A stretch of DNA of 64,000 bases from Halobellus clavatus. GTDB taxonomy: Archaea; Halobacteriota; Halobacteria; Halobacteriales; Haloferacaceae. The translations under genes were made by a program, and so were the position numbers. The stretch spans positions 558,001-622,000 of the forward strand of contig NZ_FNPB01000001.1 in NCBI RefSeq assembly GCF_900107195.1, read 5' to 3'. This document shows positions 121 through 17,260 of this stretch, one piece after another. Every line of letters begins with the position of its first letter. Position 1 is the stretch's first letter. The notes under the pieces were generated by a model that made no database searches, was not told where the DNA came from, and saw only the letters and a list, made by a program, of their open reading frames with translations.

Positions 121-1239
121 ATGGATGACGAGCAAGACAAACTGAATCGATTCCAAGAAGCATTCGAGAGAGGTCAGGAAGGCCAGATCAGCAACTATGA
201 GGCCTGGCTACAGGACCAAGGAATCGACTCAGAGAAAGTAAATAGAGAATACTTGGAACAGTACTTCCGGGAGAACCCGGAGAATGCAGTAAACCACGAA
301 GAAGAGTTAGAGGAAGTTGCGGAGTACATCGGGTTCTTCTCCCGGAGAAGCAACGTCTACCACCTACCGGTTATCGGGATTTCGGAGGTAGGGAAGACCC
401 AGTTCATTCAAACAGTCTCCAACCTTCTCGGCCAGATCGAACCGGAGATCGAGCAGCGAACCTACCGGGCAGACGATTTCACGGAACTTGGTGAAGACGA
501 GGAGAGGATCTTCGAGGTCAGAGATGAGCTTCGAGGCCTGGACAAGGTCGTTGTATACGTTGATGACTGTGAGTGGGCAGAGGCGGAGAGTCTCCTTGAA
601 TCATTCCGCGTGATTGAGAGCGTTGTTGATGACGCGTTCCTTGTCACGTCGTGGACTCCTGAGTACTGGATGCACCACAGGGAGGATGTCGAAACAGTCC
701 TTCCCTCCTCTACTGAGATCCACCTCTCTCCGTTTTCGGAGAAGGATTCACTGGAGGCGTTGAATCAGGTAGTCAAGGTTCTGTCCGATGACGGGTTGGA
801 TCTCCCCGAGGAATTCCTTGAGGAAATCCACCGGTACAGCACCGGTATTCCAGGCGTCTTCACGGACTTGTTGCTTGCTTCGCTACGCGAGGCGTTTGTG
901 AAGGAGTTGGAGTTGGGTAGTACGGAGTCGGTGGAGGCTGCCGCCGGGAAACTGAACCTCGACGAAGTGGAGGAGACGGTGTACGAGTTGTCGGATACGA
1001 AGGTAACGATTCTGACCCATATGCTGCTGTGGAACCACAGGGATGGAATACGGCCGTCTCAGCTTGTCGACCTGCTGGACAGGGACAAGTCAACGGTGTC
1101 GTACCACCTGAAGGACTTGCAGGCAGATGGCTTGGTCGAGTCAGAGAAGCAGGGTCGTTCAGCGTACTACAGGGTCAAGAATCAGGTTAAACCATTCATC
1201 CAGACCAGAATCGCGCAAAACGGTGAGTACAATGGCTAG
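121..1239 (+). CDS. P-loop NTPase with C-terminal winged helix, first gene of the pAgo operon
   Basis: A 372-aa protein starting at the ATG at 121; the frame is open to position 16 but the upstream part is basic and hydrophobic and looks untranslated. Residues 86-93 form a Walker A loop (GISEVGKT) and 143-149 a Walker B strand (VVVYVDD). Residues about 300-365 form a winged helix of the ArsR/TrmB type, ending in a wing with SAYYRVKN. The arrangement resembles archaeal Orc1/Cdc6- or STAND-like ATPases, but I do not recognise a named family. It overlaps the next gene by 8 nt, so it is co-translated with the Argonaute operon. Plausible roles are a DNA-binding sensor or regulator of the operon; this is inference. 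An AT-rich stretch at 64-100 probably holds the operon promoter. Confidence 0.75.
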   Translation: MDDEQDKLNRFQEAFERGQEGQISNYEAWLQDQGIDSEKVNREYLEQYFRENPENAVNHEEELEEVAEYIGFFSRRSNVYHLPVIGISEVGKTQFIQTVSNLLGQIEPEIEQRTYRADDFTELGEDEERIFEVRDELRGLDKVVVYVDDCEWAEAESLLESFRVIESVVDDAFLVTSWTPEYWMHHREDVETVLPSSTEIHLSPFSEKDSLEALNQVVKVLSDDGLDLPEEFLEEIHRYSTGIPGVFTDLLLASLREAFVKELELGSTESVEAAAGKLNLDEVEETVYELSDTKVTILTHMLLWNHRDGIRPSQLVDLLDRDKSTVSYHLKDLQADGLVESEKQGRSAYYRVKNQVKPFIQTRIAQNGEYNG

Positions 1240-1954
1240 TTACAAGATACTACCATTACGGAACGAAGGTATTGATCTCGAAAAGATCGAAAATCGTGTA
1301 GAGAATATGTCGGCGCTGGAGTCCAGCGCAGACCTGAGAAGCGGCACCTTGCCTCGGAGCTTACAGACATTCCGGGGCGAGATGTGCTACGTCGAGTACG
1401 CACAGGAAGAGGAGACAGAAGTCACGACGTTGGAGGGTGAAGATGAGCCGATCAAGGTCGCGGATATGTACCCGATCATCTTCCTCGGGAACGGCTACGT
1501 GGCCTACGATGCTAACCTCCCGAACCAAGACGTCGAAACAGAAGTCGTCCAGATGGTTTCAGACCTGCTGGACACGGACATCTCCTACGAGGCGGTCGAG
1601 TTCGACAAAGACGACTTGGAAGGTGTCGTGGATCAAGCGAACAAGGTTCGGGAAGCCAATTTCAATCCGTCCAATCAGAAGCCGAACAGTGTCTCAGCAC
1701 GGTATCTTCCAGGTCTCCAGGATACTGAAATCTGGCATCAATACGAGAACGATCCAATGGAGAAGGTGAGGGTGGATTTGCCGGATCAAACGACCTATAA
1801 CGTCTCGTTCTACGAGAAGGGGAAAGTCACGGTCCACGGACGAAACATCCCGGTAGATGTCCAGGTCGAGGTTCTCAGGTACATTACTGATGAGGTAGTG
1901 TCTAACCTGGATATCGGTTCGTTCCAGAAGAAGCTGGGAGGTGAGTTCCAATGA
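1232..1954 (+). CDS. Hypothetical protein immediately upstream of Argonaute
   Basis: A 240-aa acidic protein. The ATG at 1232 is preceded by GGTG with a 6-nt spacer; the longer reading from 1127 would run through the previous gene in another frame and is less likely. I do not recognise a domain. It shows two strand-rich stretches, around residues 80-110 (IIFLGNGYVAYD) and 200-230 (VSFYEKGKVTVHG followed by a helix), a sheet-then-helix pattern loosely like the repeats of TATA-binding proteins; this is only a suggestion. The 4-nt ATGA overlap with the Argonaute start means the two are translationally coupled, so it is a strong candidate partner subunit of the Argonaute. Confidence 0.7.
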   Translation: MASYKILPLRNEGIDLEKIENRVENMSALESSADLRSGTLPRSLQTFRGEMCYVEYAQEEETEVTTLEGEDEPIKVADMYPIIFLGNGYVAYDANLPNQDVETEVVQMVSDLLDTDISYEAVEFDKDDLEGVVDQANKVREANFNPSNQKPNSVSARYLPGLQDTEIWHQYENDPMEKVRVDLPDQTTYNVSFYEKGKVTVHGRNIPVDVQVEVLRYITDEVVSNLDIGSFQKKLGGEFQ

Positions 1955-4239
1955 TGCTAACCAATATTTTCCAGATGCGGAACGCTCCGGAAGATCCGTC
2001 GATGCGGCGGGTCAAATTGAGCGGTTTACCTGTCGACGAGAAACGGGACAGGATTTCATTCATACAGGCGATTATCTCGAACTTGAACAAGATGGGTGTC
2101 GACGCGTCGTTGGCACCGCAGGACAGTGAAGGAGATATCACTCTTCTCAGTCCTGACGGTAAGGAGCTAGATCTGGTCAGGGCCACGTACGACAGCTTCA
2201 ACCCTGAGTTCTTGGCCAGTAAGAAGGCGACTCAGTACGAGGTCAAGGAGGCCTGGCAGAACCGGGTGAGGACTCACTTGTCGGAGAACGGGTTCCAGAA
2301 GGTTGGACGCAAGTACGTCAGGGTGGAGGATATCCTTGATCCGTCTTCGGATTTCAAGGAGGCCTATGAGATCCAGGCGGAGATAATCGATGGGGAGCCA
2401 GCGATTTCTATTGATCCGTGTACGCGCATAATGGAGAGTTTGTCCGGTGAGGATATTCAGCGGGCAGGTAACCCGGATGAGCGTGTTGATGTACAGGTTC
2501 TTCCGAAGTGGAAGAATGGTGAACTGGTAGGACGTGCAGGGTTCAAAGCCGGGGACAAATCGTTCGAGTACCACGGTGAAAGCCTCTCCACGCCAAAGTA
2601 CTGGAAGAAAAAGTACGATATCGAGTTCGTGGATGATGACGAGGAGATGCTGGATATCTACATCCCTGATTATGATATGGAGCTTCCTTATCCGGCGTCT
2701 GTCGTCTTCGGAAGTTTCAGCCGTGGACGCTCTCTTCCGGATGATTTGAAGAAGGATCCGAAGCAGAGGGTTTCGGAGGCTGCTACGGCAATCGACCAGT
2801 ACTTCGACTCGATGCAGTTCACCGGGAGTGAAGCGGATCTAAGCAAGCTCACGACCGCGAAGGAACTGGGATACGATACTCCGAGCTTCGGTAGTTCCTA
2901 CGACTTCGATGTCCGGCTGGGCGATGACAGGAAGACCGGGGTTAATGATATTCACAAGTCGTTGAAGAGGAACGGTCCTTACGCTGGCCCGGTCAACGGC
3001 GAGTACGTTGTCATCACTCCGGAGGATGGCCGTGAGATCAGGGATGGGTTCGACGAACTGGCGAGTATTTACAACCAGTTGAACCTGGGTAGTATCTCGC
3101 GGTGTAGCGAGGTCGGAAACGATGGGATCATCGAGGTGGGAAGTCAGAACAGCAATACCTACGCTAACCGGATTACCGAGGTTCGGGATCAGTTGGACGC
3201 TATTGATTCAGACTTGATCGCTTTCGTTGTCCTGCCTGGCCACAATCAGGACGTGTACTTCCAGGCGCGTGGAAAGCTGTTTGAGCGGTTGTTCGGAAAT
3301 AATCCGGTTCCGGCGCAGGCCATTCAGTACAAGAATGTCGTGAAACTGGCCAATGACAACGGGTACTTCATCGGGGTCAACACGGCTTCACAGGTCTATG
3401 TGAAGCTTGGGAAGGTTGGTTCTGCGGTCTGGATACTGGATGAGCCCGCAGATGCACACGTCCCCGGTGTTGAACCTGGTAGTACGTGCTACGCCTACCA
3501 CGACGTCTCCCGTAGGCCGGACAAGAAGTCCGCGGCAACAGCTTACAGCGCCACCACTGATTCCTACGGGCGTTACATCGCAACAGGAGCTCAGCCGACT
3601 GGTGGCGAGAAGCTGACTGACGAGGTCTTCCACAGTATCTTGAATGAGTTGCTGAGGAAGGTTTCCGCGTTCCACCGCCGTCAAGAGACCAGTGGTGAGA
3701 AGGATTTCCACTTCAAGCGGCTGGTGTTCGCCAAGGACGGCAAGATCGGTTGGCAGGAGCAGAAGATGATGAAGAAGGTGATCAGGGAAGGCGTCCCGAG
3801 CGAGGGGAAGCGGCCTATCTCTGAGATCCTCGACGAGTCCGGTCTTCTACCGGATGATATGATTATCGACGTGGTCAGCGTCAACAAGTCTCCGAACAAG
3901 CGCGTGGTCACCCGTGACGGAAACGGGTTTGACAACGTGGCCGGCGGGAACGCGATGATTTACGGTGATGAGAGCGGGCTCCTGGTTTCACATAAGCCTG
4001 AGAGAGGTACGGCGAAGCCCTTGGAGATCACGGCGAATGACCACGTCTCCCTGAACAGGGACGACGTCCCGGAACCGACTGCTGAGAGTCTACTGAAAGA
4101 GTACTACAACTTGAGCTACTTGAACTGGTCCTCGATCTTCAGCCAGGGCAAGTACGCCTTGCCGCAGATACTGACGCAAAATCTCGGAGAAAACCTTTCC
4201 GCCGGGATCGATGTCCCGGAAAATATGGCAATGATATAA
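1951..4239 (+). CDS. Prokaryotic Argonaute (long pAgo) with near-complete catalytic site
   Basis: A 762-aa protein; the start ATG lies 7 nt after a GGAGGTG ribosome-binding site. A MID-like segment spans about 425-490 (YFQARGKLF then VPAQAIQ), and PIWI about 505-750. By eye the PIWI aligns along its length with eukaryotic Ago2: D518 in YHDVSRRP, the glutamate finger E553 in TGGEKLTDE, D596 in FAKDGK, and the terminal LNWSS...YALPQILTQN block. The fourth catalytic position, H or D in most active enzymes, falls on Q743 (or N744). The N-terminal half should contain N and PAZ-like parts, but I cannot assign them with confidence. Known: pAgos use small nucleic-acid guides to bind or cut invading DNA/RNA. 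Neighbours are Mre11, Rad50, NurA and HerA, which suggests that target cleavage or binding feeds into end resection (inference). Confidence 0.85.
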   Translation: MMLTNIFQMRNAPEDPSMRRVKLSGLPVDEKRDRISFIQAIISNLNKMGVDASLAPQDSEGDITLLSPDGKELDLVRATYDSFNPEFLASKKATQYEVKEAWQNRVRTHLSENGFQKVGRKYVRVEDILDPSSDFKEAYEIQAEIIDGEPAISIDPCTRIMESLSGEDIQRAGNPDERVDVQVLPKWKNGELVGRAGFKAGDKSFEYHGESLSTPKYWKKKYDIEFVDDDEEMLDIYIPDYDMELPYPASVVFGSFSRGRSLPDDLKKDPKQRVSEAATAIDQYFDSMQFTGSEADLSKLTTAKELGYDTPSFGSSYDFDVRLGDDRKTGVNDIHKSLKRNGPYAGPVNGEYVVITPEDGREIRDGFDELASIYNQLNLGSISRCSEVGNDGIIEVGSQNSNTYANRITEVRDQLDAIDSDLIAFVVLPGHNQDVYFQARGKLFERLFGNNPVPAQAIQYKNVVKLANDNGYFIGVNTASQVYVKLGKVGSAVWILDEPADAHVPGVEPGSTCYAYHDVSRRPDKKSAATAYSATTDSYGRYIATGAQPTGGEKLTDEVFHSILNELLRKVSAFHRRQETSGEKDFHFKRLVFAKDGKIGWQEQKMMKKVIREGVPSEGKRPISEILDESGLLPDDMIIDVVSVNKSPNKRVVTRDGNGFDNVAGGNAMIYGDESGLLVSHKPERGTAKPLEITANDHVSLNRDDVPEPTAESLLKEYYNLSYLNWSSIFSQGKYALPQILTQNLGENLSAGIDVPENMAMI

Positions 4240-4263
4240 CAAACTAAAGGAGGATTACAAACT

Positions 4264-5637
4264 ATGACCCAATCAAATCAAGGCCCGCGCTTCGTTCACC
4301 TTTCAGACGCACATATCGGCCACCGACAGTACGGTGTAAAGAAACGGCGAGACGATATGTATATGTCCTTCAACACCTCGGTTTACGAGGCTGTTGAAGA
4401 ATCTGAAGTTGATTTCGCGGTTTTCGGCGGTGACTTGTTCCATAATAAGAATGTGAATGCCCGTGCGTTGAGTGATGCTGAGGAAGGGCTTTCACGCTTC
4501 GAGGATGCGGATGTCCCTGTTGCTGCTGTCCGAGGGAATCACGACGCTAACTTGTACAAAGAGGACTTGAACTGGCTGGAGTATCTTCACAGCCGTGGGA
4601 AACTGATTCTGTTAGAGGCTGATCTCAGTGAAGAGGAGGCAGTCTTCGAGAAACACGATTTCGATGATCCGGGTACTTCTTCCGGGTACGTTGATTTAGA
4701 TGGGGTCCGGGTTTTCGGTCTCCAGTACCTTGGACAGAGAACATCTGATAATCTATCCAAGGTGGCAGATGCGATTGAACAGGTGAATGAGAAAGAAGGC
4801 GAGCCTGAAGCTACGGTCCTGATCGGTCACTTCGGCGTTGAAGGCCACATACCAGGGATGAGTGGTGGTATCTCGTTCAATGCCTTGGAACCAGTGGAGG
4901 AAGCTGTCGACTACCTCGCACTTGGTCACCTACATAAGAAATACAGTCACGGGAACTGGGTGTTCAATCCTGGTTCTCTGGAAGCCCACGATACACGGCA
5001 GGCGAGGTGGGATCTCGGTTACTACATTGTTGACGTTGAGGACGGGGAGATTTCCCCTGAGTTCCACGAGTCGAAGCGTAGACCATTCTTTGAGATCAGT
5101 TTCGAGGTTGATGCACACGACTCGCCGGATGAACTGGAGTCAGCGTTTACTGAGGAGGTCGAAGATCATCTTTCGGATCTTGACAAAGTACAGCGGAAGC
5201 CTCATTTCCAGCGTTCCGGGGAGAAGCGTGACCCAGTAATCGATCTTCGGTTAGAGGGTTTGCTACAGTTCAGCCGCTCCAGACTCGACAGTGATATTTT
5301 GAAAGATATTGTTGAGGAGAAAACCGGTGCTCTGTATGTCAATTTGAATGATGCTACGGAGTCGAAGGAGACGGCGAGCATCATCAAAGAATTGGATGGT
5401 GGTGAAGATGCAGTGAGAGATGAACAGGGCCAGATTGACCGAAGTAAGCTGGAATCCGCTGTTTTTCAGCGGTTGGCAGGTCAGGATTCACAGTACGGTG
5501 AGAAGGAAGAGGATGTTGCGGACACGTTGAGTGTGGTGAAGAAGAGCGTATTGGCTGAGGAGAATCCGGAGTCTGTTGCTGAGACTATCAAGAAACGCCG
5601 CAGAGAACTTTTCGATAACGGAGGGGATCAAGAATGA
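4264..5637 (+). CDS. mre11: Mre11 nuclease (MR complex)
   Basis: A 457-aa calcineurin-like phosphoesterase. Metal-binding motifs are in order: D15 and H17 (LSDAHIG), D57 (FGGDLFHN), N92-H93-D94 (RGNHD), then IGHFGVEGH and ALGHLHKKY near residues 185-225. The capping and Rad50-binding C-terminal region follows, to 457. Mre11 is a Mn-dependent 3'-5' exonuclease and endonuclease that processes double-strand ends with Rad50. A strong ribosome-binding site (AAAGGAGG, 4248-4255) precedes the start, and the stop overlaps the Rad50 start by 4 nt. Its position between Argonaute and Rad50 makes this an accessory copy dedicated to the operon; the host presumably has its own chromosomal pair. Confidence 0.95.
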   Translation: MTQSNQGPRFVHLSDAHIGHRQYGVKKRRDDMYMSFNTSVYEAVEESEVDFAVFGGDLFHNKNVNARALSDAEEGLSRFEDADVPVAAVRGNHDANLYKEDLNWLEYLHSRGKLILLEADLSEEEAVFEKHDFDDPGTSSGYVDLDGVRVFGLQYLGQRTSDNLSKVADAIEQVNEKEGEPEATVLIGHFGVEGHIPGMSGGISFNALEPVEEAVDYLALGHLHKKYSHGNWVFNPGSLEAHDTRQARWDLGYYIVDVEDGEISPEFHESKRRPFFEISFEVDAHDSPDELESAFTEEVEDHLSDLDKVQRKPHFQRSGEKRDPVIDLRLEGLLQFSRSRLDSDILKDIVEEKTGALYVNLNDATESKETASIIKELDGGEDAVRDEQGQIDRSKLESAVFQRLAGQDSQYGEKEEDVADTLSVVKKSVLAEENPESVAETIKKRRRELFDNGGDQE

Positions 5638-8333
5638 GGATTACCAACGTAGAACTCTCAAGCATCAAAAGCTACGACGATACAATCAATGAGATCGATT
5701 TCCGCCCAGGAGTGAATGCGATCATCGGGCAGAACGGGTCAGGCAAGTCTACAGTTCAGGAGGCAGTCGGATTTGCCCTGTTCGATTATCTTGATAAACG
5801 CGTCAGCCAGGGTGATTTCGTCCGGAATGGTGAGAATTCTGGAAAGGTTCGTGTGACCTTCATCTCGAATAAGAACGGGAAAAAGTACACCGTCGAGAGA
5901 GATGCGAAGGGATCGATTTACCGGGTGATTGATGAGGCGGATGGTGGAAAATTACCCTTGTCAGGTAAGGACGAGATATTGAGTTGGTTGAAGGAGCATT
6001 TGGGTATTCCAGAAGAGACTGAGCTTGAGACTCTGTGGAAATCCAGTATCGGTGTTCCTCAGACCAAGTTTACTAATGACTTTGCAGAGACCCCGAGGAA
6101 TCGTGAAAGGGTGTTTAACCCGTTACTTGAGGTGAATGTCTACGACGACGTCTGGGAAGATCTCCGAGAAGCAAACAACGTAATTGAGGAAGAGATCAGT
6201 GATCTTGAGACCGAGATTGAAGGCCTGAAATCCAAGGTCGAAGACCTCGACGAAAAGAAAGAGGAATTCAACGACCTAAAGCAGGAGATTGAGGAGAAGC
6301 AGGAGAAGCTAGATGAGCTCAAAGAAGAGCAGGAAGATCTGGAGAAACGTGAAGAGGAACTCGAAGACTTAGACGACCAGATCTCTGATTTAGAGACTGA
6401 GATCGACAAGAAAGAGAGTACTATCGAAGACAAGGAAGACAGCTTAGAAGACGCTGAGGATGCGTTAGAAGAGGCTGAAAAAGCTCAGGATACTATCGAA
6501 GAGGTTGAGGAAGAGTACGAGGAGTACGAAGAGAAAGATGACGAGCTGGATGGTCTCCGTGAACAGGCGAACGAGCGAGATGATATCCAGGACAAAATAA
6601 ACGGGCTAGAGAAGAAGCAGACTGAGTTGGAGACGAAGAAGGAAGGGTTGGAGGAAGATGTCGAGGATGCTGAAGAAGCGAAGGAGGAGATGGAGGATCT
6701 TGAGGACGATGTTGATCGTCAGGAAGAACTTGAAGAGAAGCTGGACGACATCGAAGACAAGGAAGACGAGATTGAGGACAAGGAAGAGGAACTGGACGAC
6801 GCTGAAGATGAGTTAGACGGGATTGAAGATGAGATTGAAGAGTTGGAAGAGGAAATTTCTGAGATCGAGGATCTTGAAGACAAAGCCGATGAGTTGGATG
6901 AGTTAGAAGAGGAAGAGCAGGATCTTCGGGATGAGAGATCGCGGTTGGAGGGCCGTATCGATGACCTGGAAGAGGCTATTGACACGTTAGAGGATACTGA
7001 GGAAGCCGAGTGCCCTACCTGTGGTCAAGACCTTGACAAGAAACATCGTGGAGAGGTGCTGGAAGAGAAACGTGAGGAGAAGTCAGAGGCCGAAGACCGT
7101 ATTTCAGAAATAGAAGGCGAACTGGATGATCTTGAAGACGAGATCAAGGACGCAAAGGATGCTGAGAAGGAGGTTAACCGTCTTCCTGACCTCTATGATA
7201 GGCTCGAAGGCTTGGAGGAAGAGCGCGACGACAAAGAGGAAGAGATCGATGACCTGGAAGATAAAATCGAGGAGTTAGAAGAGGAAGTCGGCGAGAAAGA
7301 TGAACTCGAAGAAGAACTGGATGAACTCGACGACCCGAAGAGCGAGTATAACTCGGCGAAGGCTACGTACGAGAATAACAAGGAAGCTGAGGACGAACTT
7401 GAGGAAGTCGAAGAAGAGCTGGACGACTTAGAGGACGAGATCGACGAGAAGGAAGACGAACTTGAGGAGTTCGAAGGTCTTGATAACGAGATCGAGGAGA
7501 TAGAAGATCGACTGGACGAGTTGGAGGACGCCCACGAAACCTACATCAGCAAAAAGGAGACTGCTGAGAAAGTCGAAGAGCGCCAGGAGAAGGTCGATGA
7601 CCTCGAAGAAGAGATAGAAGGGTTGGAAGACGAGATCGAGGAGAACGAAGAGGAAGTTGAAGAACTGGAAGAGCAGTTCGACGAGGAAGAGTACGAGGAG
7701 GTTCAGGAGAGAATTGGTGATCTTCAGGGTGAAATCGGCAATCTTGAAGGAACTATTGAGACCAAGCAGGACCGTCTCGACGACTTAGAAGAAGAGATCG
7801 ATGAGATGGAGGAGCAGCAGAAAGAGCTGGAAGACAAGCAGGACGAGTACGAGAGCTTAGAGAAGGATCACGAGTTCGGAAAGTTCGTCCGGGAGAGTAT
7901 GAAGGAGGCTCGGCCTCTGATCACCGAGATCCTGGTTAAAGAGATCTCCACCGAAGCGGATCGAATCTACCGCCAGCTTCGAGGCACCGCGACAGAGCAA
8001 CTGGAGTGGAGAACTGATTACGAGATAGTCATTAGAGAGAACGGCGAGGAAAAGGAGTTCCACAAGCTAAGCGGTGGGGAACAGATGAGTGCTGCTCTCG
8101 CTGTGAGACTGGCGATCCTGAAGCTTCTGAGTGACGTAGATATCGTGTTCCTCGACGAGCCTACGGCGAACCTTGACGAGGAAAAGAGACGGAACCTGGT
8201 TGACCAGTTACAGGAGTTGGAAGGTTTCGAGCAGCTCACGGTAATCAGCCACGACGACACGTTCGAGTCGGTGACTGAACACGCGATATCCCTTGAGAAA
8301 GTGGATGGCGCGACTGAGGTGGTGAGCGACTAA
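5634..8333 (+). CDS. rad50: Rad50 SMC-like ATPase
   Basis: An 899-aa protein with the standard Rad50 plan. The N-terminal half-ATPase carries Walker A IIGQNGSGKST near residue 31-41. A very long acidic antiparallel coiled coil follows, with the zinc hook C460-P-T-C463 at its tip. The C-terminal half-ATPase has signature LSGGEQ (812-817) and Walker B IVFLDEPTANLD with D841-E842. Rad50 dimerises through the hook, binds DNA ends and gates Mre11. The coiled coil is extremely rich in Glu, Asp and Lys, which creates long spurious open frames on the opposite strand. It overlaps mre11 by ATGA and nurA by TAATG, so the three are translationally coupled. Confidence 0.97.
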   Translation: MRITNVELSSIKSYDDTINEIDFRPGVNAIIGQNGSGKSTVQEAVGFALFDYLDKRVSQGDFVRNGENSGKVRVTFISNKNGKKYTVERDAKGSIYRVIDEADGGKLPLSGKDEILSWLKEHLGIPEETELETLWKSSIGVPQTKFTNDFAETPRNRERVFNPLLEVNVYDDVWEDLREANNVIEEEISDLETEIEGLKSKVEDLDEKKEEFNDLKQEIEEKQEKLDELKEEQEDLEKREEELEDLDDQISDLETEIDKKESTIEDKEDSLEDAEDALEEAEKAQDTIEEVEEEYEEYEEKDDELDGLREQANERDDIQDKINGLEKKQTELETKKEGLEEDVEDAEEAKEEMEDLEDDVDRQEELEEKLDDIEDKEDEIEDKEEELDDAEDELDGIEDEIEELEEEISEIEDLEDKADELDELEEEEQDLRDERSRLEGRIDDLEEAIDTLEDTEEAECPTCGQDLDKKHRGEVLEEKREEKSEAEDRISEIEGELDDLEDEIKDAKDAEKEVNRLPDLYDRLEGLEEERDDKEEEIDDLEDKIEELEEEVGEKDELEEELDELDDPKSEYNSAKATYENNKEAEDELEEVEEELDDLEDEIDEKEDELEEFEGLDNEIEEIEDRLDELEDAHETYISKKETAEKVEERQEKVDDLEEEIEGLEDEIEENEEEVEELEEQFDEEEYEEVQERIGDLQGEIGNLEGTIETKQDRLDDLEEEIDEMEEQQKELEDKQDEYESLEKDHEFGKFVRESMKEARPLITEILVKEISTEADRIYRQLRGTATEQLEWRTDYEIVIRENGEEKEFHKLSGGEQMSAALAVRLAILKLLSDVDIVFLDEPTANLDEEKRRNLVDQLQELEGFEQLTVISHDDTFESVTEHAISLEKVDGATEVVSD

Positions 8334-9550
8334 TGCCGCTTTACAGAGGCCGTGTAGCCGAGGAACTGGAGGGGAAAAAGTCAGAGTTCACCGGAAAGGC
8401 GATCAACCAGAAGGCTGTTGAGGAGTTCCAGGGTGCTGCGCAGAATCTAACATCTGAGTTCTCATCTGAAGAGATCAAGCAGGCGCTTGAAGAGTATGAG
8501 CTCCCGAGTGCCTTGCCTACTGAGGAGTACAGTGAAGGCGGTGACCTCGTGATCTCATTCGAGGAAAGTTCTGGATGGGAATCTCACGAGGCAGTGAATA
8601 ACTGGGCGAAAAAGAATATCCGTGGTGTGACGACTGTTGCAGCTGATGGTTCTCAGATTGATCCGGTAACAGAGTTTGAGCAGCCTGTTGGTCTTGTTCA
8701 AGCGGTTTGGATTGCGAACAGCCACACAGATGAAGGTGATTACCAGCGAGACGTAGAAACGAAGGTTCTCTCACCGGAGGATATCCTTTTCGAGGACCCG
8801 AATACCGGTCATATTCAGGTCGATAATGAGGAAGTGCCTCTGTCCCGGTTTGAGACGGAGATGCAGGTTCTGGAAAAGCAAATCAAAAAATACAGCGATG
8901 AGAGCGAGCCGCCGGTTGTTCTGTATGATGGCCCTCTGATCCTATCGTTTGCCCAGATGTTTGATCAACCTGTAAGAGAGCGTTACGGGGAGGCGCTGGC
9001 CCGAGTGCTGGCAGCAAGTAAGCATCACGAGGTCCCTGTAGTGGGTTACACGGCGGGTTCCAAAGCCAGTGATTTTGCGAAGATGATCGAGAAGCTGGAC
9101 TTGATCGATGCGAGTAGTTCAGTGCGCGACTATCAAATCTTCGAAGAGATGACCGAGAACTGGGGTGACAGGACGATCCTGTTCAATTCAAGGCGGGACA
9201 ATTCTTTGAACCAGCTTCAGACGACTTACCACGGCGTTGAGTACGACTTCTCAGATAGAATATTATTCTCGTATATGCAGATTGGAAGTGGCCCCCAATT
9301 GGACAGGCTAGATCTCCCTGAATGGGTCTTAGAGGAGGATCTGGTCGACCACGTGATGTCCGTAATCCGTTCCGAATGCGGTGTGGGCCGTGGTTACCCG
9401 GAGATTTTGCAGGCAGCGGACGCTGACGCGGTTATCAGCCGTCAGGATCGGGAAGAGTTCCTGAGGATGTATCAGGATTTCTCGAATGAGAACGATATTG
9501 AATTGAGATGGAATAACAAGGCTCTGTCAAAGAAACGGAGGCGAAGATAA
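8333..9550 (+). CDS. nurA: NurA 5'-3' nuclease
   Basis: A 405-aa NurA-family protein. Motif I is AADGSQ with D105, the second acidic motif is LYDGPLI with D199, followed by VPVVGYTAGSKASDF (about 232-246), and a C-terminal GYPEILQAADADAV segment typical of the family. NurA is an RNase-H-fold nuclease that sits on the HerA hexamer and degrades one or both strands as HerA translocates; with Mre11-Rad50 it generates 3' single-stranded tails in archaea. Its ATG overlaps the Rad50 stop by one base. The next gene starts 4 nt downstream, which makes a nurA-HAS-herA block. Confidence 0.92.
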   Translation: MPLYRGRVAEELEGKKSEFTGKAINQKAVEEFQGAAQNLTSEFSSEEIKQALEEYELPSALPTEEYSEGGDLVISFEESSGWESHEAVNNWAKKNIRGVTTVAADGSQIDPVTEFEQPVGLVQAVWIANSHTDEGDYQRDVETKVLSPEDILFEDPNTGHIQVDNEEVPLSRFETEMQVLEKQIKKYSDESEPPVVLYDGPLILSFAQMFDQPVRERYGEALARVLAASKHHEVPVVGYTAGSKASDFAKMIEKLDLIDASSSVRDYQIFEEMTENWGDRTILFNSRRDNSLNQLQTTYHGVEYDFSDRILFSYMQIGSGPQLDRLDLPEWVLEEDLVDHVMSVIRSECGVGRGYPEILQAADADAVISRQDREEFLRMYQDFSNENDIELRWNNKALSKKRRRR

Positions 9551-9554
9551 TACT

Positions 9555-10178
9555 ATGACACTAGAAAACGACACAGAGGTCGGTTCGATCATTGGTTCAA
9601 ACTCGCATATAGACTATGTCGGAGAGATATACACGGAGACGATGCGGGAGAGCCCGCCGGAGCCGACGGACTTTGAGTTCGGCCAGTTCGTGTATGTGCT
9701 GAAGGAGGTGCAGGGTCAACAACGGGCGTTTATTGGTATTATCTACGACACTCAGCTTGTGGATCCGGATCAAGGAAGATCCGGGCCACGGCTGGCTCAA
9801 CCGGATGAGCAAAACATTTTCCAACCGAGTTACGTGGATGAAAAGCAGGTTCTCACCGGTATTGCACTTCTGGGCTATGCTGAGGTAGAAGACGGTGAGC
9901 TTGTGAATCCTGAGCACTCGATTCCGCGATGGACGTTGGAGATCGACGATGTCGTTCGGAAACTTTCTGAGGAAGACGTAATTCGGTTCCACGAGGTCGA
10001 CGAAGAGGTACGACTGGAGTACTACCAGAGGATAGTCGATGTCGCTGGCGGGTTTGCTGAGGATATTCTCAGCCAAGTCTTGACCGAGCTGAAGGAGGAG
10101 AAGCCCGGTGAAGCAGATGCGTTAGATGTGATTCAGAAGAATCTAGAGTGGCAGACTAAGATGGGAGGTGTTGAATAG
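9555..10178 (+). CDS. HAS-barrel-like HerA-associated protein
   Basis: A 207-aa acidic protein wedged between nurA and herA, abutting the herA ATG directly. Residues about 5-115 read as a small beta-barrel (GSIIGSNSHIDYVGEIY, then FGQFVYVLKE and FIGIIYDTQL), the pattern of the HAS-barrel found at the N-terminus of HerA and some ATP synthase subunits. The C-terminal third is helical. By analogy it may be a free-standing barrel that contributes to HerA-NurA assembly. The assignment is from pattern and context, not from a diagnostic motif. Confidence 0.65.
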   Translation: MTLENDTEVGSIIGSNSHIDYVGEIYTETMRESPPEPTDFEFGQFVYVLKEVQGQQRAFIGIIYDTQLVDPDQGRSGPRLAQPDEQNIFQPSYVDEKQVLTGIALLGYAEVEDGELVNPEHSIPRWTLEIDDVVRKLSEEDVIRFHEVDEEVRLEYYQRIVDVAGGFAEDILSQVLTELKEEKPGEADALDVIQKNLEWQTKMGGVE

Positions 10179-11819
10179 ATGGTTGTCGGAATTGTCTCAG
10201 AGCCGGGCGAAGGTTCCAACGAGTTTGTAATCGTCACCCCTGACGATACTGAGATTAAGACGGGAGAGTTCGTGTACTACACGAGCGATGTAGAGGTCCG
10301 AAATGACGATGGTGAAATTGAAGAGCAGGAAAAGAAGATTTTTGCCCGCGTTACCGGACGTGAGCAGCAGCGCGGGTTCCCAGATCAGTTTATGGCTGAT
10401 CCCGGGGTTTCACCGAATGCTGTAGCTCGTAAACTGGGTATCTCTACTGACGGAGTTGATCTGTACAATATTACTGCGACCGTCATTGGATACTACGACG
10501 AGCAACTCAACGATTTCACAAACCCACGTATTGTTCCGGAACCGGGCACTGAGATCAGTTTAGCGTCTGATTCTGATCTGGAAGACTATCTAACTGAAGC
10601 GGAGCCCGAAGAGGGTTCGGCGTTTATTGGTGACTTGATTCACCGGCCGCCGGAACGGACTAAGATTCATTTGCCGATTGATGCCTTTACGTCGACTCAC
10701 CTGTCGGTGCTGGCGTCGACAGGCAGCGGTAAGTCGTATACTGCTTCTGTACTGGTTGAGGAGATGATGCAGCCAGATTCAAGAGCTGCAATACTGGTTC
10801 TGGATCCTCACGGAGAATATGGCTCCTTGGATGATATGGAGGAAGAGGAGTTGAGTGATAAGTTCCGAGGAGACGACGGTTACTCTCCGGAGGTCCAGAT
10901 CAAGCGACCGGATGATATCCAGATCCGGATCAGTGAGCTTTCGTTAGGTGACCTGTTCTCGATTATCGACGATCCGTCTGATCCTCAGGAACAGGTTCTC
11001 GCAGAAGCTTGGAACCAGCTCCAGTCAGAGGAGGACGATTACATCTCCATCAACAATATCCAGGACAAGGTAGAGGAGGTCGGGGAGGAGAAAGACCTTG
11101 AGAGCAGTGCCCGCGCCTTAGATTGGCGGATTGACAAGGCTCTTGACCGGGACTTGTTCGATCATAGTAACCACCTGTCGCTTCCGGAGCTTCTGGAGCC
11201 TGGGCAGTGTACGGTGCTTCAGTTGGATACTATGGATCTCCGGGATCAGCAGATGCTGGTCAGTGTGCTGTTCCGGAAAATCAATCAAGAAAGAGTTGCC
11301 CACGAAAAGGATCGTGAGTCAGAGTTAGAGTTCCCGGTGTTTGGTCTGCTGGAAGAGGGACATCGATTCGCTCCGGCGGATGGTGATGCCCGCTCTCTAC
11401 CAGTGCTCAGCACGATTCTGAGTGAGGGACGTAAGTTCGGGGTGGGTATCGGGATTATCAGTCAGCGTCCGAGCAAGATAGATGATGACGTACTATCGCA
11501 GTGTAAGACCCAGATCATTATGCAGATCCAGAATCCGCTGGATCAAGACGCTGTGAAGAAGGGTGTTGAGGATGTTGGAGAGGATCTGCTTTCGGAGCTT
11601 CCAGGCCTCACACCAGGACAAGCCATCATAGCCGGTGACAGTGTTAACACGCCGTTCCTTACCCGGATCAGAGAGCGGCATACGGAGCACGAGGCCGAGA
11701 GCTTGGAGGCCACAAAGAGATGGCAGCAGAACTGGAAAGAACAGCAGAGAGGTCCTGAAGGGGTTGCTGAACCGGAGGATGAGGAGGGTGCCGAAAACAG
11801 GGACCAGCCCCTAGATTAG
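10179..11819 (+). CDS. herA: HerA bipolar DNA translocase/helicase
   Basis: A 546-aa HerA/FtsK-superfamily ATPase. An N-terminal HAS-barrel covers about 1-110; Walker A is ASTGSGKSYTA with K185; ILVLDPHGEYG follows about 30 residues later. Walker B and the sensor region are FGLLEEGHRFAP and ISQRPSKIDDDVLSQC, with the C-terminal block LPGLTPGQAII, all diagnostic of HerA. It forms hexamers that pump DNA into NurA. It ends in a disordered acidic tail. It is the last gene of the pAgo operon and converges with a minus-strand regulator, overlapping it by 9 nt. Confidence 0.95.
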   Translation: MVVGIVSEPGEGSNEFVIVTPDDTEIKTGEFVYYTSDVEVRNDDGEIEEQEKKIFARVTGREQQRGFPDQFMADPGVSPNAVARKLGISTDGVDLYNITATVIGYYDEQLNDFTNPRIVPEPGTEISLASDSDLEDYLTEAEPEEGSAFIGDLIHRPPERTKIHLPIDAFTSTHLSVLASTGSGKSYTASVLVEEMMQPDSRAAILVLDPHGEYGSLDDMEEEELSDKFRGDDGYSPEVQIKRPDDIQIRISELSLGDLFSIIDDPSDPQEQVLAEAWNQLQSEEDDYISINNIQDKVEEVGEEKDLESSARALDWRIDKALDRDLFDHSNHLSLPELLEPGQCTVLQLDTMDLRDQQMLVSVLFRKINQERVAHEKDRESELEFPVFGLLEEGHRFAPADGDARSLPVLSTILSEGRKFGVGIGIISQRPSKIDDDVLSQCKTQIIMQIQNPLDQDAVKKGVEDVGEDLLSELPGLTPGQAIIAGDSVNTPFLTRIRERHTEHEAESLEATKRWQQNWKEQQRGPEGVAEPEDEEGAENRDQPLD

Positions 11820-12218
11820 CTTCTGTACCTGGTCTCTGAAGACCTCGAATTTCCTCTCCAATTCTTCTACTCGGTTTTCCAGTTCGTGGGTTTTTTCGAC
11901 GAGTTCGCTGTGACTAAGATTTTCATATTCGTCTAGATCCGTCCGTTCCGAATGTTCCAGGTACTGTTGTCCTTTCTCGGTTAGCTGTGCTTGTTTGGGG
12001 TGTTGGAAGACCCGTTTCTGCCCTTCTATTACTCGTTCGACGGTGCCGTCTGGTTTTGACACCGTGAGTAGTCCGTGTTGTTCGAGTTTTTGGAATGCGT
12101 AGGTGACGTGGTGGTTTTCGAGGGTGGTTTCTGAGGTGATTTTCTGTACGTCGTCGTTGCCACTCCGGATTTGCTGGAGTATGATTTGTTCTTTGTCTCT
12201 GAGTTCTGGTTCAGTCAT
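11811..12218 (-). CDS. Winged-helix regulator with C-terminal coiled coil
   Basis: A 135-aa protein. Residues about 8-55 form a winged helix (TLENHHVTYAFQKLEQHGLL); about 95-135 form a coiled coil (ELENRVEELERKFEVFRDQV). This domain pair is common in haloarchaeal plasmid regulators. It overlaps the coupling-ATPase gene by 8 nt and is the last gene of the minus-strand conjugation operon, so it may autoregulate transfer genes (inference). Its 3' end overlaps the 3' end of herA. Confidence 0.75.
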   Translation of the reverse strand: MTEPELRDKEQIILQQIRSGNDDVQKITSETTLENHHVTYAFQKLEQHGLLTVSKPDGTVERVIEGQKRVFQHPKQAQLTEKGQQYLEHSERTDLDEYENLSHSELVEKTHELENRVEELERKFEVFRDQVQKLI

Positions 12219-14130
12219 CAGCTGCTGTTAGGACGCATTGTGTTTCGAGTGCGGAGCAGAATCCCTGGTCGTCGCGGTAGAGGCAGAAGTTTTCCAGGTC
12301 TTCCCGGTCGTTGTGCTCCAGTTCAGGGCACTCGTTTTCCACTTCTTCGTGCTCCTCTAGGGTGTCGCCGCTGAGCTCCAGTACGCGGTACTCGGCCTGC
12401 CTCAGTTCCTCGACGTCGGTGATGGGTTCGCTGTCTTCGTTGGTGTAGTAGCTGTAGCTTCCTTTCTGGTCTTCGTGTTCATTGCCGCGGCGGTTGACCG
12501 GGTCGGAGACGATGTTCTCCAGTTTCGCTGCTTTCCCTTCCTCGACGACGAAGAACACTTCCCGATCCTCCTGGACGCCTCTACGCAGGTTTTTCAAGAC
12601 TTTTCCGGGCTTTGTCAGTGTGGAGTGTTCTGCTTCGAGGTGTGCGACTTCGTTGTCGGGTAGGTGGACGTGGCCGTCGGGTTTCTCTTCTTCTTGACCT
12701 TGGTACAGCAGGTTGACGTGGAATCCCCGGTTTTCTAGATCTTGTTTGGCTGCTGCGAGGAGTTCCTGGTGCTTTTCTTGGCCGGCGTTGGCCTGGTTCC
12801 CGAGTGACTGGGTAAGCTGGACCTGTGTTTTGTTGTTGGTGCGGGCGGCAGCTTTCTCCGCTTTGATCTTGTCGACGTCGCTGTAGTCGGCTTCCCAGGG
12901 CGGGTACGTGTTGAACAGGACTGCGTTTCTCTGGTTCTTCTCCGAGGGTTTCTGGACTACGGCTCGGTACTTACCGAGGCTGGTCAACGTGTGTTTATCG
13001 ATGCCTTGCAGCATTCCTGCGATCTGCGACGTGTTTTCGCTGCCGCTGGGGTTGAAACAGATTTTGGTCCGGCAGTTGTTGGATACGGCCCGCCGCATTT
13101 CTGATGCGAGTTGTTGGAGGTACTGTGTGGCGAGCCAGCAACCTAAGCGGTATTCGCGGGCTTCGGACAGGATTTTGGTGAAGTTGCTGCCTTCGCCGGC
13201 GAAGTTCTGGAGTTCGTCGACGTACAGGAAGAACGGGGTGCGTTGTTCCTGGGGTTGTGTGATCCGGCTTTGTGCTGCTGCCCAAATCTTGGTGATGACA
13301 ATACTTCCGACGAGTTCTGAGACGGTCCCACCGACCTCTCCCTTCTGAATATCCACCAAGACGATCTTCCCGTTGTTGACAGCTTTTCTGAAGTCTAAGC
13401 CGGATTCTTCTGCGCCGATGACTCTGCGGATGGTCGGGTTCATCACGAAGTCGTTCAACCGTCGCTGCAAGGGCTCCATCTCGTAACTACTCATATCTTC
13501 TTTGACCCGAACGAGTTGTTCCCGGATGACGGAATCCCGTGTCTGGTCGATGAGCTCGGTTAGTGGTTCGTCTTGGATTACGCAGCGGAAGACGTCGACC
13601 AAGGTTTTCGAAGAGTTTTGTTTGATATTGAGGTCGAGGTGTGCCCTGAGGAGTGTTTCGAGGACTCGTCCGAACTGGTCTCCCCAGTTCTCGCTTTGGC
13701 GTTTGAACAGGTCGATGAGGTCGGAGACGATGATCTCCTTCTGGTTCTCCCTCTGCGCCTGATTCATCCCTTCCGTAACCTGGGGTTCGAGGACGTTGAT
13801 CGGGGTCACCGGTTCCCTGGCCGGGTTGATGTAGACTACGTCGTCCAGCCTGTCTTCAGGTAGTTTGGCGATGAATTCGTCTATCAGGTCTCCTTTCGGG
13901 TTGAGAATGGCGAGGCCGTGATCTTTCTCTGCGTCCTGTAGTGCGACGTGGAGCAGGAGCTGGCTTTTGCCGTAGCCGGTCGGCCCGATGTTCAGGACGT
14001 GAGTCGGTCTGTAGTCATCATTGACGCCGACGTTTTCCTCGACTCCTAACTGGCTTTCACGGAAGCCGAGGTACGTCGTGGTCAGGTTTTCTGTGCTTTC
14101 GATCAGTGTACGGGTATCTTCCGGGTTCAT
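12211..14130 (-). CDS. VirD4/TraD-like conjugation coupling ATPase
   Basis: A 639-aa ATPase. Walker A is NIGPTGYGKSQ with K55; ILNPKGDLIDEF follows; Walker B is FFLYVDELQNF near residue 300; then CWLATQYLQQL and CFNPSG. These are T4SS coupling-protein features (TraG/TraD C-terminal domain). Unlike bacterial VirD4 there is no N-terminal membrane anchor. The last 50 residues carry four cysteines (CPELEHND, NFCLYRDDQGFC, QCVL), which could bind zinc. It would bring DNA to the transfer channel. It overlaps neighbours on both sides by 4-8 nt. Confidence 0.85.
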   Translation of the reverse strand: MNPEDTRTLIESTENLTTTYLGFRESQLGVEENVGVNDDYRPTHVLNIGPTGYGKSQLLLHVALQDAEKDHGLAILNPKGDLIDEFIAKLPEDRLDDVVYINPAREPVTPINVLEPQVTEGMNQAQRENQKEIIVSDLIDLFKRQSENWGDQFGRVLETLLRAHLDLNIKQNSSKTLVDVFRCVIQDEPLTELIDQTRDSVIREQLVRVKEDMSSYEMEPLQRRLNDFVMNPTIRRVIGAEESGLDFRKAVNNGKIVLVDIQKGEVGGTVSELVGSIVITKIWAAAQSRITQPQEQRTPFFLYVDELQNFAGEGSNFTKILSEAREYRLGCWLATQYLQQLASEMRRAVSNNCRTKICFNPSGSENTSQIAGMLQGIDKHTLTSLGKYRAVVQKPSEKNQRNAVLFNTYPPWEADYSDVDKIKAEKAAARTNNKTQVQLTQSLGNQANAGQEKHQELLAAAKQDLENRGFHVNLLYQGQEEEKPDGHVHLPDNEVAHLEAEHSTLTKPGKVLKNLRRGVQEDREVFFVVEEGKAAKLENIVSDPVNRRGNEHEDQKGSYSYYTNEDSEPITDVEELRQAEYRVLELSGDTLEEHEEVENECPELEHNDREDLENFCLYRDDQGFCSALETQCVLTAADD

Positions 14131-15104
14131 TGTTCAGCTTGGGTGATGTTTTCCTGCTCAATGCTGGGCAGCGACAGCAGGGCGGCGAGTTCGGGAACCG
14201 AAGTTTGGAAACTGTGGCTCCAGGATCCGAACTGTCGGTGGGCGACCGTTTTTGCGAAGTCGAGGACCCGCTGTTCCCGAAGTGATTTGACGGTGACTGT
14301 GTCGAGGTATTGGCCGGTGTCCGGGTTTTCGAAGGTGTTGTAGCCGCCGCTGAGTTCCTTCACCCGGCTCTGCGTGTATTCGTCTGCTCCGATAACCAGG
14401 AACCGGATACTGGTGTGGAAGCGGTTGGTTCCGGCCTTGTCTTCGATGGCGTCGGCCTGCCGTTTTTCCCGTGGGGTCGGGTTACGGCTGCCCCACAGCT
14501 TTTCTTTCTCTTTACGGAGGTAGCCGATTCTCTGGTATGCTCTCTTCCTCCAGTACCACCGACGCAGGGGTTTGCCGATGACGGGTTGGAACAGGATTTG
14601 TACGATGAACTTGGTGTCTCTCATCGCGTGCCTGTGCAGGCTGGAGACGACGGAGTTCACCGGCGGTTGTTTGAATTCGTGTTTCAGCGGGTACCAGTCT
14701 TTCCTGCCTGTGGTGAGGAGTCCTCCGCCGACTGTGTCTTCTGAGGCGACTGGGATTCCGTTGGTGCCTTCTTCGAACCGGATTCCTGGTATTTCGTTGG
14801 TGAGGTGTGTCCGTAGTTTCCGCTCTAGTCGGACTGTGGGTGTGGAGAACTGGAACTTGATTTTGTCTGGGTGGGTTCGCCGGATTTCGAAGGCGGCGAC
14901 TGGTGACGTGTTTAGGAGTCCGAAGTACTTGGACTGTAGCTCGGTGACGGCTCTCACCAGGTTTTCCGGGACTGCTGGAATGTCTCCGTTCCTTGGTGTC
15001 TTGACTTCGATGGTGTGGGACTGTACCGCGGGTTTCCGCAGGTGTTCTGCTTCCTCTTCGGAGGGTGTGGTTGTGTAGTACAGGAGGGGGTCAAGGAGGC
15101 TCAC
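14127..15104 (-). CDS. Conjugation-operon protein of unknown function
   Basis: A 325-aa soluble protein between the VirB4 and coupling-ATPase genes, overlapping both by 4 nt. It has a basic central stretch (about 195-245, WYWRKRAYQRIGYLRKEKEKL) and no membrane segment or signal peptide that I can see. I recognise no catalytic motif. The fixed position between the two T4SS ATPases suggests a structural or adaptor subunit that links them; this is inferred from context only. Confidence 0.7.
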   Translation of the reverse strand: MSLLDPLLYYTTTPSEEEAEHLRKPAVQSHTIEVKTPRNGDIPAVPENLVRAVTELQSKYFGLLNTSPVAAFEIRRTHPDKIKFQFSTPTVRLERKLRTHLTNEIPGIRFEEGTNGIPVASEDTVGGGLLTTGRKDWYPLKHEFKQPPVNSVVSSLHRHAMRDTKFIVQILFQPVIGKPLRRWYWRKRAYQRIGYLRKEKEKLWGSRNPTPREKRQADAIEDKAGTNRFHTSIRFLVIGADEYTQSRVKELSGGYNTFENPDTGQYLDTVTVKSLREQRVLDFAKTVAHRQFGSWSHSFQTSVPELAALLSLPSIEQENITQAEQ

Positions 15105-17260
15105 TGGTTTTCACCCTGGTTGATGATCTGGTGTTCGATGTCTGTGGATTCGATCTTGATTCGGGTGTCGAGTTTTCCGGAGATTTTCAGGAGTGCTTCG
15201 CTGTACTCGCTTTCTGTCCCGGTTTTGAGTTCGTGGAGTTCCTGTCGTTCCCGGTCGGAGAGTTGGAAGTATTCGACGACGTCGTCGGGCACCCGGTCGT
15301 GCCTCATAAACACTTTACACGGCATATTGTCGAGGATTTCACGGCCTTCTCGGCAGTAGGTGAAGTGGGAGGCGTTCTGACTGATTAGGGTGACTGCGGT
15401 GTTGGTATCTCGTCCTTCGAGGACGAACTGGTTCAGGACTTGTCGCCCGGTTTCGTGGTTCATCAGGATCCGGGCTTCGTCGATCAGGACCAGTGTTTTT
15501 CTCTGGTTTTTGCTGGTGTAGCTGTAGATGTCTTGTACCAGATCGACGAGTTCGTCGACGTCGTCTCTTTGGCCGCGTTCCTCGACTTGGAAGCAGAGGT
15601 GCTGGTCGTCGAGTTGTTCGAGGCTTTGTTTGTGTGGGAGGGTGATGCAGGTTCCGTCGAGGCTTTGAATGATTTCGTGGTACTCTTTTTTCGGGTCTAC
15701 TGCGATGATCTGAAGATCGTCGTAAACGAGGTCAGCACGCAGTAACTCGATTTTGGCGGCGTAGCTTTTGCCGGAGCCGACCATTCCCATCCGGGCCATT
15801 GAGTGAGACGGCCACTGGAATCGATCGGCGAGGATGGGTGCTTCGTCGCTGGTGTCTACGCCGTAGATGACACCGTTTCTTTGACCGGTTTGCTGTGTTC
15901 CGAAGGGGAAGCCTGCTGCTGCGGTGGTGGATGGTACTAACTGGGTTTCGTTCAGAGGGTCGGGGTACAGTGGCTGCTGTGTTTTGTAGGCTTGATCGGT
16001 TCTGAGGAATGTGTTCCCGTACTTGATTTGCTGGGTGTCTAACCTGTTTTTGATCTGTCTAAGTGTTTGCCGGCACTTGGTTTTGGATTTGCTGTGTGCT
16101 GTGATGTAGACGGCGTGGTCGACGGGTTGTGCTTTCCTGTCTGCGAACAGGTCGAGGATCCATTCCGTGTCTTCGAGCAGTGATTCGAGTTTGTTGGTTC
16201 CGCGGTAGCCGTGGCTGAGGAAGGAATCGATCTCGGCGTTCAGTTTCTCCGAGATGCGTTGCAGTTTCCTCGTTGCTTTACCTGTGTCTCTGGGTTCGAT
16301 GACCTGTGTTACGTCGATGAGGCCGTCGGTACGCAACAACTGTAGAGGCCAGCCCAGCTCGACGCTAGACGGGTATTCGGAGATGTACAGGGTTTTCCTG
16401 TACTGGTGGCTGGAGTTGTAGTCTTCTCTGCGTGAGTTCCAGGTCGGCGAGGTCTGCGGTCCTGTGTCTCCACCGATTATGACATTTCCCTCACTGAACC
16501 GGTGTACCTTGCTTTTCAGGCTTGATTCGGTGAGGCGTTCGGCCTGTAGATCTGCTGTGTTGAGTGTGGTGATGACTTCACGGCACCGGTTGTCCAGTTC
16601 GCTTCTACGGTTTTTCTTCCGTGAGTAGTTGTTGTACTGGAGTTTGTCGAGGAGCCAGTGACCGGTGTCTTTCTCCGATTTCAAGATGATGTAGTGTTTG
16701 GTCGTGGATTGCTCTTCCTCGGAGAGTGAATTGATGTATTGCGAGTAGTGCTCTCCTAGATCTGTGCCGGGAGAGCCTCTTTGCCAGATGTTTTCCTTGT
16801 AATTCCTCAGATTGCGGCTGCGCTGCTGTGAGTGGATGTGGATCGGGTAGGTGACGGTGTCCAGCAGGTCCTGATAGATGTTGTGGAGGGCTCCTTGCTC
16901 GGTGTCCGTCTTCATATCCAGGTTGGTCGGTGAGACCTGGATTACCGCTGCTATGGTGTCTCTATCTAGTCTGACGTACTCGTCTCTATGGGGTGCTACA
17001 CTCGGTGCTTTCAGTTGCCGCTTGTTGATGAACCAGCGTGGAGCGTGGTATGCGAGCTGGTCCAGGTGGTGGCCGAGCGGGGTCCACCGGTACCAGACTG
17101 CTCCCAGCACTAATGCCGAGGCCAGTACCGGTATCGGGGCGTTGGTGAAGTATGCGAGTGCTGCCGGCGTGAGGAGCCTGGTCAGATCTTTGACTGTGAA
17201 CTGGCCGAACAGTTTCGTGTCGACGTCGAGCCTGCCAGGTGCCTTGATTCTGAGACTCAT
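15101..17260 (-). CDS. VirB4/TrbE-like T4SS ATPase with PrgI-like N-terminus
   Basis: A 719-aa protein. Residues 20-65 hold two hydrophobic segments of the PrgI/VirB3 kind; the ATPase part has Walker A MVGSGKSYAAK (about 500) followed by IIAVDPKKEYHEI. Walker B is TLVLIDEARILM and the last motif TAVTLISQNASHF. VirB4 ATPases energise pilus assembly and substrate transfer at the cytoplasmic face of the membrane. Fusion of the VirB3-like anchor to VirB4 is known from other T4SSs. It overlaps the channel-protein gene upstream by one base. Confidence 0.87.
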   Translation of the reverse strand: MSLRIKAPGRLDVDTKLFGQFTVKDLTRLLTPAALAYFTNAPIPVLASALVLGAVWYRWTPLGHHLDQLAYHAPRWFINKRQLKAPSVAPHRDEYVRLDRDTIAAVIQVSPTNLDMKTDTEQGALHNIYQDLLDTVTYPIHIHSQQRSRNLRNYKENIWQRGSPGTDLGEHYSQYINSLSEEEQSTTKHYIILKSEKDTGHWLLDKLQYNNYSRKKNRRSELDNRCREVITTLNTADLQAERLTESSLKSKVHRFSEGNVIIGGDTGPQTSPTWNSRREDYNSSHQYRKTLYISEYPSSVELGWPLQLLRTDGLIDVTQVIEPRDTGKATRKLQRISEKLNAEIDSFLSHGYRGTNKLESLLEDTEWILDLFADRKAQPVDHAVYITAHSKSKTKCRQTLRQIKNRLDTQQIKYGNTFLRTDQAYKTQQPLYPDPLNETQLVPSTTAAAGFPFGTQQTGQRNGVIYGVDTSDEAPILADRFQWPSHSMARMGMVGSGKSYAAKIELLRADLVYDDLQIIAVDPKKEYHEIIQSLDGTCITLPHKQSLEQLDDQHLCFQVEERGQRDDVDELVDLVQDIYSYTSKNQRKTLVLIDEARILMNHETGRQVLNQFVLEGRDTNTAVTLISQNASHFTYCREGREILDNMPCKVFMRHDRVPDDVVEYFQLSDRERQELHELKTGTESEYSEALLKISGKLDTRIKIESTDIEHQIINQGENQ

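What the first reader, a model, noticed from the sequence alone, without database searches (positions are those of the whole stretch)
1951..4239. Argonaute with D-E-D and an apparent glutamine at the fourth catalytic position
Aligning by eye to Ago2, D518, E553 and D596 fall on the catalytic Asp, glutamate finger and second Asp. The fourth, normally H or D before the C-terminal helix, lands on Q743 (or N744) in YALPQILTQN. Three of four are intact, so the enzyme may cut weakly, depend on another metal ligand, or act as a guided binder that leaves cutting to Mre11/NurA.
Basis: partly seen in the sequence, partly recalled or inferred. Interest (0 to 1): 0.7.

Follow-up and report, generated by a model that had tools for sequence, protein, structure and literature searches.

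The report
Argonaute with glutamine in active site
A salt-loving archaeon carries an intact, well-conserved Argonaute whose active site keeps three of the four usual residues but has glutamine in the fourth place, encoded in one operon with a second set of DNA-end-cutting enzymes (Mre11, Rad50, NurA, HerA), a pairing that recurs in related species and looks like an unreported anti-invader system.

Summary
The 762-aa ORF at 1951-4239 is a real Argonaute: its AlphaFold model matches solved Agos over its whole length (Z about 30). D518, E553 and D596 are the first three catalytic positions. The fourth is Q743: MAFFT and a gapless register test agree, and Q743 sits at the same place in the last helix (start +6) as catalytic D854 in an AlphaFold control of a DEDD relative. 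No Asp, Glu or His lies at 739-746; only N744 would give a recognised form. All 19 haloarchaeal DED-intact relatives have D there. The gene is not decaying: against a 97.5%-identical copy in another genus, dN/dS is about 0.025, and Q is kept.

The neighbourhood is the larger finding. Ago is the third gene of an operon ATPase-wHTH / 240-aa protein / Ago / Mre11 / Rad50 / NurA / 207-aa protein / HerA, beside PLD-nuclease and methyltransferase genes, on a low-GC island with conjugation genes. The five-gene nuclease module occurs in about 40 of 391 haloarchaeal genomes. About nine have an Ago or its remnant beside it, several with an intact DEDD tetrad, so this partnership does not require a dead Ago. 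Residual cutting and guided binding both remain open.

The parts
121..1239 (+). wH: ATPase with P-loop (GISEVGKTQ) and C-terminal winged helix; first gene of the operon
   Evidence: Pfam MarR/ArsR-type HTH, PADLOC Csa3-type HTH; about 41% homologue next to the DEDD-Ago/Mre11 loci and, elsewhere, next to CBASS cyclase genes
1232..1954 (+). duf240: 240-aa protein without any library match, downstream of wH
   Evidence: No Pfam/NCBIfam/PADLOC/PHROG match; in 13 of 391 haloarchaeal genomes
1951..4239 (+). Argonaute, 762 aa, N-PAZ-MID-PIWI; catalytic residues D518, E553, D596 and Q743
   Evidence: dN 0.0127, dS 0.504 against the copy in G334
3502..3504 (+). codon of D518, first catalytic Asp
3607..3609 (+). 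codon of E553, glutamate finger
3736..3738 (+). codon of D596, second catalytic Asp
4177..4179 (+). codon CAA of Q743, fourth catalytic position
4264..5637 (+). Mre11-like nuclease, phosphoesterase motifs intact (DAH, GGD, GNHD, GH, GHLH)
   Evidence: Pfam Metallophos 1.3e-12; motifs
5634..8333 (+). Rad50-like ATPase with Walker A, zinc hook CPTC and SbcC Walker B
   Evidence: Pfam AAA_23, Rad50_zn_hook, SbcC_Walker_B; NCBIfam PRK03918 5.5e-96
8333..9550 (+). NurA nuclease
   Evidence: Pfam NurA 2.2e-31
9555..10178 (+). X207: 207-aa protein, constant member of the Mre11-Rad50-NurA-X-HerA module
   Evidence: no library match; 40 of 391 genomes, with the nuclease module in almost all loci
10179..11819 (+). 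HerA-type hexameric ATPase
   Evidence: Pfam DUF87/HerA 4.5e-38

Best explanation
This is a functional Argonaute of a mobile haloarchaeal defence island. It keeps the fold, a guide 5'-end pocket (Y436, R440 in place of the usual K, Q456, K485) and three metal-site residues, but the fourth ligand is glutamine. Most likely it still binds guides and invader DNA and retains a metal site with reduced or conditional nicking, and hands the marked or nicked DNA to Mre11-Rad50 and HerA-NurA (and possibly the neighbouring PLD nuclease), which open and degrade it. Shown here: the gene, its four positions, purifying selection, the operon, its recurrence and the intact motifs of the partners. Inferred: guide loading, residual cutting, hand-over to the partner nucleases and the anti-invader role.
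For: Full-length Ago fold. Q743 at helix start +6, as D854 in the control. D, E and D retained although the protein is only about 14-19% identical to the other Ago groups, while the long Agos that lack the fourth residue have also lost others of the tetrad (S/x/N or D/x/G); retention of all three by chance at that identity would be under 1% (inference). dN/dS about 0.025 over dS 0.5. Q743 also in the C-terminal piece of Haloquadratum walsbyi J07HQW1, whose last 31 residues are 84% identical against about 52% elsewhere. One operon with gene overlaps or short gaps. About nine loci with an Ago or Ago remnant beside the nuclease module. The genome has separate housekeeping Mre11 and NurA/HerA genes elsewhere, so this set is an accessory copy. 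Precedent: in the haloarchaeal APAP system the Ago works with a PLD nuclease, and Ago catalysis is needed against a virus but not against plasmids (PMC11442185).
Against: No precedent for Gln at this position was found; published active tetrads have D, H, K or N. The same nuclease module is found without any Ago in most genomes, so it does not depend on Ago. No experiment shows that these genes act together. Only two intact copies of this Ago are known, and the other relatives are broken or incomplete.
Confidence: 0.45

Rival explanations
1. Catalytically dead guided binder: loss of the fourth ligand abolishes cutting, and the Ago only marks invader DNA so that Mre11-Rad50, NurA-HerA or the PLD nuclease cut it.
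For: Fourth residue outside D/H/K/N. Intact partner nucleases in the same operon. In APAP the Ago catalytic residue is dispensable for plasmid restriction. Pfam Piwi score is below the cut-off (24.6 against 28.9).
Against: D518, E553 and D596 are all kept; inactive relatives lost the residues together. Agos at related nuclease-module loci keep DEDD, so the partners do not need a dead Ago.
Confidence: 0.33
2. Ordinary active slicer: N744, not Q743, is the fourth ligand (DEDN), or Q743 coordinates the metal as well as Asn does, so nothing unusual happens.
For: N is listed as an allowed fourth residue (PMC11442185); sequence register alone is weak; N744 is invariant in the four C-termini including the C23 remnant, where 743 is H.
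Against: Helix anatomy and the profile register favour 743 over 744.
Confidence: 0.17
3. Decaying gene: the Ago is on its way out, like the truncated or frameshifted copies in Haloquadratum.
For: The C23-type genome keeps only the last 164 codons while Mre11 to HerA stay open; frameshift near codon 42 in two metagenome assemblies.
Against: dN/dS about 0.025 between the two intact copies, with full-length frames in both.
Confidence: 0.05

Closest known systems
Haloarchaeal APAP system (long-A Ago plus PLD nuclease AgaP, PMC11442185)
   Same: Haloarchaeal Ago beside a PLD-family gene; the PLD protein next to this operon is 39% identical over most of its length to the PLD protein between Ago and Mre11 in L132
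   Different: This Ago has DED-Q, is only about 17% identical to haloarchaeal long-A Agos, and sits in an operon with Mre11-Rad50-NurA-X-HerA; the PLD motif HSK/GSPN is 15 residues apart, not about 50. The paper's main text names none of Mre11, NurA and HerA
Catalytically inactive haloarchaeal long Agos of about 735 aa (L041-L048, L051, L052), long-B-like by tetrad
   Same: Nearest group in a FastTree of MID-PIWI (branch support not inspected); similar length; LNW motif before the last helix
   Different: They lost most of the tetrad (S-x-N-x or D-x-G-T) and have other, conserved neighbours of about 360 and 150 aa
Archaeal mre11-rad50-herA-nurA DNA-end resection operon (known from thermophilic archaea; from general knowledge)
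   Same: Same four enzyme types in one operon
   Different: Accessory second copy on an island, with X207 inserted and with Ago, wH and duf240 added

Membership tests
Argonaute (long, N-PAZ-MID-PIWI) | Full-length Ago fold | tested here: met
   AlphaFold pLDDT 76.8; best solved matches are Agos over model 1-762, e.g. 6qzk_A Z 30.4, rmsd 5.2, 649 aligned
Argonaute (long, N-PAZ-MID-PIWI) | Guide 5'-end pocket in MID | tested here: inconclusive
   Y436, Q456, N477 and K485 match; the first Lys is R440 (alignments); binding not tested
Catalytic long-A Ago | DEDX tetrad with X = D, H, K or N | tested here: not met
   DED met, fourth is Q743; 79% of long-A Agos have the tetrad, so this alone does not exclude long-A origin (PMC6299218)
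Long-B Ago | Tetrad lost | tested here: inconclusive
   The complete tetrad is absent (fourth is Q), but D518, E553 and D596 are intact, unlike the inactive groups compared
APAP system | Ago with complete DEDX tetrad | tested here: not met
   DED-Q
APAP system | Adjacent PLD nuclease with HxK and GSxN about 50 residues apart | tested here: not met
   PLD gene adjacent (G000:C19:555962-558163), but HSK174 and GSPN192 are 15 residues apart
Mre11-Rad50 | Phosphoesterase motifs; ABC ATPase with zinc hook | tested here: met
NurA-HerA | NurA domain; HerA/DUF87 ATPase domain | tested here: met

The most novel reading that the evidence does not exclude
A guide-directed DNA-end-resection defence system: Argonaute, with an unusual DED-Q site, nicks or marks invading DNA and loads an accessory Mre11-Rad50 and HerA-NurA machine onto it, under control of an ATPase-wHTH/240-aa pair that is also used by haloarchaeal CBASS-like loci.
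Probability: 0.35. Interest if true: 0.8.

Novelty: new variant of a known kind. Interest (0 to 1): 0.58.

Why it matters
It offers a natural test of whether the fourth ligand of the Argonaute active site is essential. It also shows a recurrent link between Argonaute and the Mre11-Rad50-NurA-HerA machinery, which was not found in the papers searched. Guided targeting joined to end resection would connect defence with DNA repair enzymes in archaea.

Tried and rejected
A viral-contig search (two scans) and a plasmid search found no relative, so a virus- or plasmid-record source is not shown. An alignment that mixed fragments gave no usable search pattern. X207 as a relative of the HerA N-terminal domain was tested by profile comparison and found no support. 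phmmer against solved structures found nothing at E up to 10, so only fold comparison places it. The idea that the His at position 743 in the C23 remnant proves a canonical ancestor was set aside: the remnant has lost the rest of the site, and Q to H is one base (CAA to CAC); Q is shared by the two intact copies and J07HQW1. A search for papers on Gln in the RNase H fourth position gave nothing useful. No paper was found that joins Argonaute with Mre11, NurA and HerA as a system, but subscription papers and preprints are not in the library.

Full report
Observation. The ORF at 1951-4239 encodes 762 aa. Sequence libraries recognise it unevenly (Pfam Piwi 1.9e-5, below cut-off; PADLOC pAgo 4.5e-51), and no solved protein matches by sequence. 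The AlphaFold model (pLDDT 76.8) matches Argonautes over its full length, with Z about 30. D518, E553 and D596 are confirmed by HMM, MAFFT and model anatomy.

Fourth position. MAFFT gives Q743. To calibrate the model, a DEDD relative (L108) was folded: its last helix is 848-861 and its catalytic D854 is at start +6. Here the last helix is 737-750 and start +6 is Q743, with the same 26-residue step from the previous helix start. A gapless profile test prefers 743 within the helix but is not significant against shuffles, and local HMM alignments do not reach the helix. Among 19 haloarchaeal DED-intact long Agos other than this one the fourth residue is always D; in Agos that lost other catalytic residues it varies.

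Is the gene alive? A copy in another genus of the family (G334) is 97.5% identical, with dN 0.0127 and dS 0.504, so it is under strong purifying selection. Neighbouring genes have very different divergence (dS 0.23 for wH, 1.0 for duf240, 1.8 or more, or saturated, for Mre11 to HerA), which points to a mosaic history. Haloquadratum relatives are broken or incomplete: a C-terminal remnant with H743 (G014, a contig of 3,148,033 bases, which from memory is the size of the H. walsbyi C23 chromosome) and frameshifted, gapped copies in J07HQW1 and J07HQX50; the frameshift could be an assembly error. The Ago is rare: a match was found in 5 of 170 genomes of the family, two of them intact.

Surroundings. 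The operon is wH, duf240, Ago, Mre11, Rad50, NurA, X207, HerA. Upstream, outside the window, are a PLD protein (97% in G334), an N6-methyltransferase (88% in G334) and a gene read by eye as a tyrosine recombinase (52% in G334). Downstream are TraD- and VirB4-like genes on the other strand. GC is 45-55% over the first 48 kb and 65-68% after it, so this looks like an integrated island. The genome has its own housekeeping Mre11 and NurA/HerA genes elsewhere.

Recurrence. X207 marks 40 of 391 haloarchaeal genomes, and in nearly all fetched loci it lies in Mre11-Rad50-NurA-X-HerA order. An Ago lies within about 15 kb in G000, G334, G224, G151, G095, G373, G068 (split by a stop) and G141, with a remnant in G014; G052 has one about 28 kb away. 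In a 3-4 Mb genome, chance co-location within this distance would be about 1% per genome (inference). Four of these have the order wH, duf240, DUF2797, Ago, an RNase_H_2/HHH protein and a DEAD helicase, divergent from the nuclease module. L104 has kept wH, duf240 (broken), the RNase_H_2/HHH protein, the helicase and the nuclease module but no Ago or DUF2797 was detected. PLD relatives lie beside many module loci, with or without Ago. The wH-duf240 pair also occurs without Ago beside an oligonucleotide cyclase and TGT genes matching PADLOC CBASS models, which fits a shared defence regulator.

Mechanism. Retained DED in a very diverged protein favours an altered but working metal site over a dead one, but only modestly. 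Partnership with nucleases does not explain Q743, because DEDD Agos share the same partners. I place residual or conditional cutting plus hand-over to the nucleases first (0.45), a dead guided binder second (0.33), and an ordinary slicer third (0.17).

Known and new. Ago with PLD in haloarchaea is published as APAP (PMC11442185); that paper's main text names none of Mre11, NurA and HerA, and its section on haloarchaeal Agos states a consistent DEDX tetrad. The Ago-Mre11-Rad50-NurA-X-HerA association and the DED-Q site were not found in the papers searched. I rate it a new variant of a known kind.

Noticed in passing
L136:15962-18163 (just outside window, contig G000:C19:555962-558163, - strand): PLD-family protein with a C-terminal P-loop, divergent from the operon, 97% identical in G334; HSK174 and GSPN192.
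   Followed up: partly
L136:12283-14826 (outside window): N6-adenine methyltransferase-like gene conserved (88%) at the same place in G334; could protect self DNA.
   Followed up: no
window 12211-18339, - strand: Conjugation-type genes (TraD/TrwB-like, VirB4/HerA-like ATPase) convergent with the operon; genes of similar size stand in the same place in G334 (L038).
   Followed up: partly
L166, L167, L168: wH-duf240 pair; in L166 and L168 the next genes match CBASS oligonucleotide cyclase and TGT models, so the pair may be a general defence regulator or sensor.
   Followed up: partly
L050 / L031 (G000:C24:11890-13239): A second, short Argonaute (about 473 aa, catalytic residues lost) in the same genome.
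   Followed up: no
L038 against window 121-11819: Ago and wH are far more similar between the two genomes than the genes around them, suggesting recombination within the operon.
   Followed up: partly
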